From positions 1 through 64,000 of the forward strand of contig CANJUR010000019.1 of the NCBI GenBank assembly GCA_947477565.1: DNA of 64,000 nt, read 5' to 3'. Positions 3,628 through 5,297 of this stretch are shown here, piece by piece (within the stretch, counting starts at the first letter, position 1; each line of letters starts with the position of its first letter). The notes below the pieces were generated by a model. It did not search any database. It was not told the origin of the DNA and worked only from the letters and a program-made list of their open reading frames with translations. The translations under genes were made by a program, and so were the position numbers. The DNA comes from Deltaproteobacteria bacterium (GTDB taxonomy: Bacteria > Myxococcota_A > Polyangia > Polyangiales > Ga0077539).

Positions 3628-4284
3628 TCAGTGGTCCGACCACGCCTCGGCAAACACACCGCAGCCGAAGCGCTGTCGCCCACCGATGCCGAGCGACTGC
3701 ACCCGTATCGAGTGCTCATCCGACAGCCCGCGCAGAATCACCGGGTACCCCACAATGATCTGCCCCCGGATGTGCAGCACCCGCTGCCCGTCCGGGTGGG
3801 CGCCCGTGGTCGGCCCCCACGGAATCTCTACCGTGGCGCGCACCCCCATCGCCGCGAGGCGTTCGTGCAGACACTGCTCGAACTCCGCCCGCTCGACGTC
3901 GTCCCGAACCACCACCATGCGTGCCACCAGCATCGACGTGGGCCGCAGCGTGAACACCTCCGCCGCGCCCACGGTCACCCGGTGCCCTTCGACGCTGAGC
4001 GTCGCCCCCGTGAGCGACTGCACCCGCTCGAGTTGCGCCGGGTGCACCCGCAGCCGCAGCGCCCGGTTGGGCTGAGCGAGCCCCAGCATCCCGCCCCCGA
4101 GCGGTGCGCCGCGAATCGGATGCACCGACAGCCACGGGGCGCCGTGCATCTCGCTGAGCACCCCGCACATCGCTCCGAAGAGCCCGTACCCGTGCTCATC
4201 GGGGACGCGCTCGCCGCCCAGGGGGAAGGCGACATCGACGCGGGAGAAAGACTCGATCAGCGCCGTCGCAGTGGGTTCATTCAT
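3628..4284 (-). CDS. cas6: Stand-alone Cas6-family endoribonuclease (Cmx6/type I-MYXAN-like)
   Basis: RVDVAFPLGGERVPDEHGYGLFGAM...VHPIRG...LRLRV...LTGATLSVEGHRVTVG...IVGYPVILRGLSDEHSIRVQSLGIGGRQRFGCGVF; C-terminal glycine-rich LGIGGRxRxGCGVF is a Cas6 hallmark. Confidence 0.85.
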   Translation of the reverse strand: MNEPTATALIESFSRVDVAFPLGGERVPDEHGYGLFGAMCGVLSEMHGAPWLSVHPIRGAPLGGGMLGLAQPNRALRLRVHPAQLERVQSLTGATLSVEGHRVTVGAAEVFTLRPTSMLVARMVVVRDDVERAEFEQCLHERLAAMGVRATVEIPWGPTTGAHPDGQRVLHIRGQIIVGYPVILRGLSDEHSIRVQSLGIGGRQRFGCGVFAEAWSDH

Positions 4285-5297
4285 CGCTTCCGAGCGACTT
4301 TACGAACCTCCATGAGGGCTATGCGGCCCCGTACATCGTCGTCGATAGACGGCACTGCGCCCGCGTTCAGCGCCCGCTCCGCAGCCTCCAGAGCGCCCTT
4401 CGCCACCTCGCGCACCGCCGCCGCGAGCGCGACGTCCATCCCGGTGACGTGCGCGCCGAGGCTCGCGATGAAGCGCGCCAGAACAAGGTGCCCCGCGACC
4501 TCTCCCTCCACCCTGAGCCGATCGCCGCTCACGGTCTTCCTGGAGGTCACCATGGACGGAAGGTTGTCTTCGATCCACCGCTCCGAGCGCCGCACCTCGA
4601 ACCAGAACGGCACCCGCGCGCTGCTCCGATACCCGTCCACCCCGCCGCGGAGAAACTCCTCGATCTCCGTCCGCGGCGTCTCCCGAAACACCGTCACCGG
4701 TCGCGGCGTCGTGTCCTGGATGCGATCGATGCGAAAGACCCGCAGCGCCCCGCTGCGGTGACACCAGGCGATCATCCGCGGGGTCGATGCGTGCTCCAGA
4801 AGCTGCGGCGAGACGTCCCGCCAGCTCAGGTCGCCGCTGTTCTGGCTGTGGTACTTGATCGCGAGACACTGCCGTCGGCGCAGCGCATCGAGCAGCGCGC
4901 GCACGTGCCGATCGAGGTCATCGGGCATCGTCGCCGGGACGATGGTGTCCACGGCCTTCTCGCCCCAGCCGCCCGCGGACAGTAGCTCGCGCACCAGCCG
5001 CTCGCGCCCGGGGCCTCGCGGCGCGCTCAGGATCAGCGCATAGAACTCCGGCAGCAGCGCCTTTCGGATGCGCACGCTCCCCGCGAGCCAGCCTTCCTCC
5101 AGCTTCCAGAGCACCTGCGGCCCGTGGCGCTCGGACGTCAGCGGAATCTGCGCGTCACAGAGCGCCCGGAGCACTCCTCGCGTGGCCTCCGTCGTCAGGT
5201 CGAGCTCCCGCGCCAGCTCCGACTGCACCCAGCTCGATCGCTCCAGGAACAACCCGATGACCTTCGTTGCCGAGTCCGATGCGCTCCGTCTCCCCAT
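4281..5297 (-). CDS. HTH/WYL-domain transcriptional regulator
   Basis: N-terminal winged-HTH-like (QSELARELDLTTEATRGVLRAL) followed by a WYL-like core (RRRQCLAIKYHSQNSGDLSWRDVSPQLLEHASTPRMIAWCHRSGALRVFRIDRI); stop overlaps the cas6 start by 4 nt. Confidence 0.85.
   Translation of the reverse strand: MGRRSASDSATKVIGLFLERSSWVQSELARELDLTTEATRGVLRALCDAQIPLTSERHGPQVLWKLEEGWLAGSVRIRKALLPEFYALILSAPRGPGRERLVRELLSAGGWGEKAVDTIVPATMPDDLDRHVRALLDALRRRQCLAIKYHSQNSGDLSWRDVSPQLLEHASTPRMIAWCHRSGALRVFRIDRIQDTTPRPVTVFRETPRTEIEEFLRGGVDGYRSSARVPFWFEVRRSERWIEDNLPSMVTSRKTVSGDRLRVEGEVAGHLVLARFIASLGAHVTGMDVALAAAVREVAKGALEAAERALNAGAVPSIDDDVRGRIALMEVRKVARKR

What the first reader, a model, noticed from the sequence alone, without database searches (positions are those of the whole stretch)
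3628..5297. WYL regulator translationally coupled to a solitary Cmx6-type Cas6
Seen: a minus-strand pair whose stop and start overlap by 4 nt (4281-4284). The first protein is HTH plus WYL-like. The second carries the full Cas6 pattern (VAFPL..HGYGLFGAM..VHPIRG; RLxxQxLGIGGRxRxGCGVF). Known: Cmx6 normally sits inside MYXAN-type (I-G/I-D-like) cas operons, and WYL proteins regulate CRISPR and other defence loci (e.g. CapW/BrxR) and sense nucleic-acid ligands. Inference: with no other cas gene or CRISPR array in 64 kb, this may be a stand-alone RNA-processing module. It could serve CRISPR arrays in trans, mature a non-CRISPR structured RNA, or be an RNA-sensing defence or regulatory unit.
Basis: partly seen in the sequence, partly recalled or inferred. 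Interest (0 to 1): 0.85.

Follow-up and report, generated by a model that had tools for sequence, protein, structure and literature searches.

The report
Orphaned CRISPR RNA-cutter and its regulator
A group of uncultured myxobacteria has kept, intact and tightly coupled, only the first two genes of a CRISPR immune operon (a regulator and the RNA-cutting enzyme Cas6) after losing everything else, which suggests the enzyme now has a different, still unknown job.

Summary
Window 3628-4284 (-) is a bona fide Cas6/Cmx6: TIGR02807 159.6 bits against a 98.85 cut-off, Pfam E=3e-48, likely active-site His and Gly-rich loop intact, modelled fold matching the Cas6 of type I-B CAST. Window 4281-5297 (-) is a WYL regulator. 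They overlap by ATGA.

The pair is conserved: the same two genes with the same overlap occur in 4 of 5 genomes of the genus (the fifth is 64% complete). Their Cas6 clade has 100/100 support. No other cas gene lies nearby.

The three best genomes (93-94% complete) show no Cas1, Cas3 above cut-off, Cas8b, type III RAMP or cognate repeat. In other genera of the family a homologous WYL gene sits immediately upstream of cas6 at the head of complete type I-B (MxI-B) operons, with a gap between the genes. The pair is therefore best read as the retained head of such an operon, re-coupled and kept under selection.

What Cas6 now cuts is unknown: no repeat-like substrate was found in the transcript or the genome. 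Best guess: a WYL-controlled hairpin RNase acting on non-CRISPR RNA. In-trans crRNA processing is possible but unsupported. The library searched held no published description.

The parts
3628..4284 (-). cas6 (Cmx6 type), 218 aa, full length, likely catalytic His31 and Gly-rich loop GIGGRQRFGCGVF intact
   Evidence: PF09559, TIGR02807 and PADLOC above cut-offs; invariant residues; AlphaFold2/Foldseek to 8fcu_B, TM 0.82
4281..5297 (-). WYL-domain regulator, 338 aa, first gene of the pair
   Evidence: PF13280 51.5 bits; orthologues 78-81% upstream of cas6 in three congeners; homologues 27-33% upstream of cas6 in complete operons
4281..4284 (-). ATGA stop/start overlap, inferred translational coupling
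   Evidence: Identical in window, L003, L004 and L005; absent in CRISPR-linked relatives L007, L010 and L012, which have a gap
4285..4364 (-). 3' part of the WYL gene encoding a C-terminal extension not present in the operon-linked WYL homologues; probably derived from the former intergenic gap (approximate limits)
   Evidence: Protein alignment A3 and junction sequences

Best explanation
The pair is the 5' end (WYL regulator gene, then cas6) of an ancestral type I-B (MxI-B) CRISPR-Cas operon. In the ancestor of this genus it outlived, or was separated from, cas3-cas8-cas7-cas5-cas4/1-cas2 and the array, and selection then kept it as a free-standing two-gene operon. The two genes became tightly coupled: the WYL frame lengthened across the former gap and now ends on the cas6 start codon (ATGA). 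Most likely mechanism (inferred): the WYL protein binds DNA through its N-terminal HTH, is gated by a nucleic-acid ligand in its WYL domain, and controls its own operon; Cas6 is made with it as an active, hairpin-specific RNase that processes one or more host RNAs that are not CRISPR transcripts. Shown here: identity of both genes, conservation, overlap, origin, and absence of the other markers. Inferred: catalytic activity, DNA target, ligand and RNA substrate. The confidence given is for the whole statement; the origin and retention under selection alone I put at about 0.85.
For: Same pair and overlap in 4 of 5 congeneric genomes. Cas6 clade 100/100. Homologous WYL immediately upstream of cas6 in complete operons of three other genera of the family. 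No Cas1, Cas3 above cut-off, Cas8b, RAMP or cognate repeat in G000, G009, G011. 36 of 40 family-conserved Cas6 positions kept in the window, 32 in all 11 solitary sequences, including His31 and the Gly-rich loop. dN/dS below 1 in both genes. An operon head in G008:C90 is decaying while these are intact. WYL regulators switched by nucleic acids are known, e.g. PafBC by ssDNA (PMC11804915).
Against: No RNA substrate found. Cas6 evolves faster than WYL and the neighbouring genes (dN/dS 0.46-0.60 against 0.22-0.33 and 0.19-0.20), so its role may be less constrained or changing. No operator conserved across the four upstream regions was evident. Activity is untested.
Confidence: 0.5

Rival explanations
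1. Cas6 kept for service in trans: it matures crRNAs for CRISPR arrays or type III effectors that individual strains gain and lose, as Myxococcus appears to do where MxI-B-type repeats serve III-B.
For: Ancestral catalytic and Gly-rich residues are kept. In Myxococcus L032/L033 a related cas6 sits beside an array and type III-B genes without MxI-B effector genes. Shared MxI-B/III-B repeats are described (PMC11237760). Congener G012 has a type III system.
Against: No cognate repeat above noise in any of the five genomes of the genus, with strong hits in four related genomes as positive controls. The G012 type III locus has its own PF10040 Cas6 and a different repeat. The best three genomes have no type III or Cas1 genes. 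Only 22% of G000 was scanned directly for arrays of other types.
Confidence: 0.18
2. WYL-Cas6 works as an RNA-gated regulator: Cas6 mainly binds a hairpin RNA, and together with, or as ligand donor for, the WYL protein it switches transcription elsewhere. Cleavage is secondary.
For: Overlap implies matched synthesis. WYL is the more conserved partner. Solitary-specific fixed residues in Cas6 cluster at 155-181 and could be a new partner or RNA surface. WYL domains bind nucleic acids in PafBC.
Against: No interaction data; the likely catalytic His is invariant.
Confidence: 0.15
3. A relic: the pair is a leftover operon head with no current function, or WYL alone is useful and cas6 is a passenger.
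For: Cas6 dN/dS is two to three times that of neighbours. Decaying heads exist in the family: G008:C90, and WYL plus a cas3 fragment in G006:C68.
Against: Intact frames in four species and in further metagenomic relatives. Retention of family-invariant residues. A tight overlap that arose after separation. dN/dS is clearly below 1 in every pair and is likely overestimated in GC-rich genes.
Confidence: 0.12
4. Artefact of incomplete MAGs: the rest of the system exists but was lost in assembly or binning.
For: The genomes are fragmented (200-1470 contigs), three records are titled MAG, and arrays assemble poorly.
Against: Three genomes at 93-94% completeness all lack every marker. The pair lies on 73-107 kb contigs among ordinary chromosomal genes, syntenic between G000 and G009. 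The same searches find the systems in related genomes of similar quality.
Confidence: 0.05

Closest known systems
Cas6/Cmx6 of the myxobacterial type I-B (MYXAN / MxI-B) CRISPR-Cas system (TIGR02807, PF09559; PMC11237760)
   Same: Protein family, fold, conserved His and Gly-rich loop; a homologous WYL gene immediately upstream in other genera of the family
   Different: No cas3, cas8, cas7, cas5, cas4/1, cas2 or array; WYL and cas6 overlap instead of being separated; the Cas6s form their own clade
Cas6 of the type I-B CRISPR-associated transposon (PDB 8fcu/8fcj)
   Same: Best structural (TM 0.82) and best PDB sequence match
   Different: There Cas6 is part of a Cascade-transposase system; here no Cascade gene is present. 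The position of His31 is Asn in that protein
WYL regulators of defence systems (BrxR, CapW) and of DNA damage (PafBC, DriD)
   Same: WYL domain with N-terminal DNA-binding-like part; a regulator beside genes derived from a defence system
   Different: Only weak sequence similarity (BrxR and CapW E about 0.3-0.4, PafBC 2e-6); the single partner gene is a Cas6
Exapted CRISPR derivatives (type IV, CAST, Streptomyces I-E-derived cas5-6-7-8 with a STAND NTPase, the Myxococcus dev operon; PMC8730458, PMC6452270)
   Same: Reductive evolution of a Class 1 system with loss of adaptation and interference, limited to one lineage
   Different: More extreme: one Cas protein remains, with no other RAMP and no guide RNA source

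Membership tests
Cas6/Cmx6 protein family (TIGR02807) | Score above the curated profile cut-off over the full length | tested here: met
   159.6 against 98.85 bits, profile positions 3-195 of 197
Cas6/Cmx6 protein family (TIGR02807) | Conserved N-terminal His and C-terminal Gly-rich loop | tested here: met
   His31 and G199/G201/G202/R203/G207/C208/G209 invariant
Cas6/Cmx6 protein family (TIGR02807) | Cas6 (double RRM-like) fold | tested here: met
   pLDDT 84, pTM 0.81; Foldseek best 8fcu_B TM 0.82, then other Cas6 structures
Cas6/Cmx6 protein family (TIGR02807) | Hairpin RNA cleavage | not testable with these tools
   Needs biochemistry
Type I-B (MxI-B) CRISPR-Cas system | Interference genes cas3-cas8-cas7-cas5 | tested here: not met
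   None in the flanks; no Cas3 above cut-off and no Cas8b in the genome
Type I-B (MxI-B) CRISPR-Cas system | Adaptation genes cas4/1 and cas2 | tested here: not met
   No Cas1 in G000
Type I-B (MxI-B) CRISPR-Cas system | CRISPR array with repeats ending TTGAGCAC | tested here: not met
   Repeat model finds nothing above noise in the genus, with positive controls in G002, G004, G006 and G008
WYL-domain transcription factors | WYL domain | tested here: met
   PF13280 51.5 against 21.8 bits
WYL-domain transcription factors | C-terminal WCX domain | tested here: inconclusive
   PF25583 13.7 bits, below its 23.9 cut-off
WYL-domain transcription factors | Operator binding, autoregulation and a nucleic-acid ligand | not testable with these tools
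   No operator conserved across the four upstream regions was evident
Exapted CRISPR derivative | Loss of adaptation and interference with retention of an intact cas gene across species | tested here: met
Exapted CRISPR derivative | A new, non-immune function | not testable with these tools
   No substrate found

The most novel reading that the evidence does not exclude
A free-standing regulatory unit in which a nucleic-acid-sensing WYL transcription factor and a tightly coupled Cas6 RNase control host gene expression by cutting non-CRISPR hairpin RNAs: Cas6 domesticated as a cellular RNA-processing enzyme, with no guide RNA and no other Cas protein.
Probability: 0.4. Interest if true: 0.82.

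Novelty: new variant of a known kind. Interest (0 to 1): 0.6.

Why it matters
Exapted CRISPR derivatives are known, but those described in the reviews read here keep several Cas proteins or a guide RNA. A lone Cas6 kept with its regulator after the rest has gone would show that the processing nuclease is useful on its own, and offers a setting without arrays in which to ask what RNAs a Cas6 acts on besides CRISPR transcripts. It also offers a CRISPR-operon WYL regulator with a single downstream gene, which makes its ligand and operator easier to study.

Tried and rejected
1) Repeat covariance model against the genus: a 20.2-bit hit shared by all five genomes lies antisense in a conserved methyltransferase-like ORF, also in G010 where the pair was not found; rejected as a substrate. 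2) Rfam scan of those regions: nothing. 3) Repeat-like hairpins in the wyl-cas6 transcript or at the junction in CRISPR-linked relatives: none convincing. 4) RNAalifold windows along the wyl-cas6 alignment: best z -1.4, no signal. 5) Tandem hairpin array at 9118-9406 with a GAGCAC motif: unique to this genome, so not argued as the substrate. 6) A second Cas6-like hit in G000:C99 (34%, E 8e-4, one stop inside): no Cas6-like ORF apparent there. 7) The pair on viruses or plasmids: no relative in IMG/VR; plasmid hits are only 29-49% identical, cyanobacterial. 8) Fold search of the WYL model was skipped because the model is poor (pTM 0.35). 10) PF01905 (DevR) misses most of the Cas7s of this subtype, so its absence is weak evidence.

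Full report
WHAT IS THERE. On the minus strand, window 4281-5297 encodes a 338-aa WYL protein and 3628-4284 a 218-aa protein; the stop of the first and the start of the second share ATGA. The second protein is Cas6 of the Cmx6 type: PF09559 E 3.3e-48, TIGR02807 159.6 bits against a cut-off of 98.85, PADLOC Cas6 E 4e-49. AlphaFold2 gives pLDDT 84, pTM 0.81, and Foldseek's best PDB match is the Cas6 of the type I-B CRISPR-associated transposon (8fcu_B, TM 0.82), which is also the best match by sequence. His31 and the Gly-rich loop are invariant in the family alignment. The first protein has a WYL domain (PF13280, 51.5 against 21.8 bits) and a sub-threshold WCX match. Among solved proteins it is nearest PafBC (E 2e-6), with marginal hits to BrxR and CapW. 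The flanking window genes encode a WD40 protein and a pectinacetylesterase-like protein.

IT IS A CONSERVED UNIT. Searching the family (13 genomes) finds the closest Cas6s in three other genomes of the same genus (G009, G011, G012; 60-64%), not in the 64%-complete G010. In all three the gene upstream is the WYL orthologue (78-81%) and the ATGA overlap is identical. G009 is syntenic with the window on both sides; in G011 and G012 the flanking genes differ from those of the window (RND efflux and P450 genes in G011). A tree of 81 Cas6s puts P0001, P0003-P0012 and the three loci in one clade with 100/100 support. No cas gene or array lies in L003-L005. In the scan of about 85,000 GTDB genomes with the Cas6 alignment, most of the 37 loci are ordinary operons with cas3 next to cas6. 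The exceptions are L003-L005, the decaying L009, two Myxococcus loci with cas6 and an array beside type III-B genes (L032, L033), and two loci where the cas6 match is partial (L038, L039). In the whole order, 17 of 186 genomes match this Cas6 at all.

WHERE IT CAME FROM. In three other genera of the family (G002/L007, G004/L010, G008/L012) a homologous WYL gene (27-33% identity, shared MG(R/Q)(R/K)SA N-terminus) is immediately upstream of cas6, followed by cas3, cas8 (Cas8b by Pfam in L012), cas7, cas5, cas1 (fused to Cas4 in L012) and cas2, and repeats are found in those genomes. This matches the MxI-B subtype described for myxobacteria, with cas6 first, a Cas4-1 fusion and repeats ending in TTGAGCAC (PMC11237760). 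In those operons the two genes are separated: 14-58 nt to the longest possible cas6 ORF, more to later start codons. In the solitary clade the WYL frame continues across that space and ends on the cas6 start. The coupling is thus a derived state shared by the clade. The conserved RKR at the WYL C-terminus overlaps the likely Shine-Dalgarno sequence, so its conservation need not reflect protein function.

IS THE REST OF A CRISPR SYSTEM ELSEWHERE? Cas1: none in G000, G009, G010, G011. Cas3 above cut-off: none in the genus. RAMPs: none in G000, G009, G010, G011. Cas8b N-terminal domain: none in the genus. A covariance model of 21 cognate repeats finds more than 100 repeats in G002 and significant repeats in G004, G006 and G008, but nothing above noise in the genus. 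G012 alone has a type III system, with its own PF10040 Cas6 and an unrelated repeat. Direct scanning of 1.44 Mb of G000 shows only tandem or coding repeats; an array of an unrelated repeat type in the remaining 78% is not excluded.

IS IT UNDER SELECTION? Of 40 columns at least 95% conserved in the other Cas6s, 36 are kept in the window protein and 32 in all 11 solitary sequences. Solitary-specific fixed residues cluster at 155-181, possibly an altered RNA or partner surface (inference). Nei-Gojobori dN/dS is 0.46-0.60 for Cas6, 0.22-0.33 for WYL and 0.19-0.20 for two flanking genes. In such GC-rich genes dS is probably underestimated, so the ranking is more useful than the absolute values: Cas6 is constrained but faster than its neighbours. 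A comparable operon head in G008:C90 shows decay: WYL broken and cas3 lost after its first codons. G006:C68 has a WYL gene followed by what reads as a cas3 fragment.

MECHANISM. Shown: an overlapping regulator-RNase gene pair derived from a CRISPR operon, intact and lineage-specific, in genomes where the rest was not found. Inferred: WYL regulators can be switched by nucleic acids (PafBC by ssDNA, PMC11804915), so the pair most plausibly works as a regulated Cas6 acting on host hairpin RNAs. I could not find the substrate: the repeat model, a structural scan of the wyl-cas6 transcript and the local repeats all failed. The only local oddity is a tandem hairpin array at 9118-9406 that is unique to this genome.

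NOVELTY. Searches of the paper library for solitary, orphan or stand-alone Cas6 found no report of such a unit; the library lacks most subscription journals. Exapted CRISPR derivatives are an established class (PMC8730458, PMC6452270), so this is an unusually reduced new variant of a known kind.

Noticed in passing
window 9118-9406: About seven tandem copies (period 42-43 bp) of a perfect hairpin GGAGCGCTCGAAGCGCTCC followed by GGGGAGCACAC, found nowhere else in this genome nor in four congeners. It lies 3.8 kb from the WYL gene; loosely recalls hairpin-plus-GAGCAC CRISPR repeats, but the repeat model does not hit it.
   Followed up: partly
window 32330-32657: Degenerate 15-48 bp tandem repeats inside an ORF of Lys/Ala/Pro-rich, histone-H1-like composition.
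   Followed up: no
window 13528-16385: Minus-strand ORFs that read like rnpA, yidD, yidC and jag, so the region may lie near the replication origin (read from ORF sequences, not profile-tested).
   Followed up: no
L131 (G008:C90) 680-1700: A decaying operon head in the same family: WYL broken by stops, cas6 open, cas3 lost after its first codons.
   Followed up: yes
L127 (G006:C68) 6698-8363: A WYL gene followed by what reads as an N-terminal cas3 fragment, apparently a remnant of another subtype's operon.
   Followed up: partly
L128 (G008:C20) 7238-11305 and 18858-19986: The same WYL family heads an operon with a different cas3 and an I-E-like repeat (GTGGTCCCCGCCTGCGCGGGGATGAGCCG), so this WYL family serves more than one CRISPR subtype.
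   Followed up: no
L032 and L033 (Myxococcus qinghaiensis, M. eversor), about 10000-16600: cas6 followed directly by an array and, in L032, by genes that read as type III-B cmr genes, with no MxI-B effector genes within the locus.
   Followed up: partly
L115 (G012:C525): Type III locus with several RAMP genes, ORFs that read as reverse transcriptase and Cas1, and its own PF10040 Cas6.
   Followed up: partly
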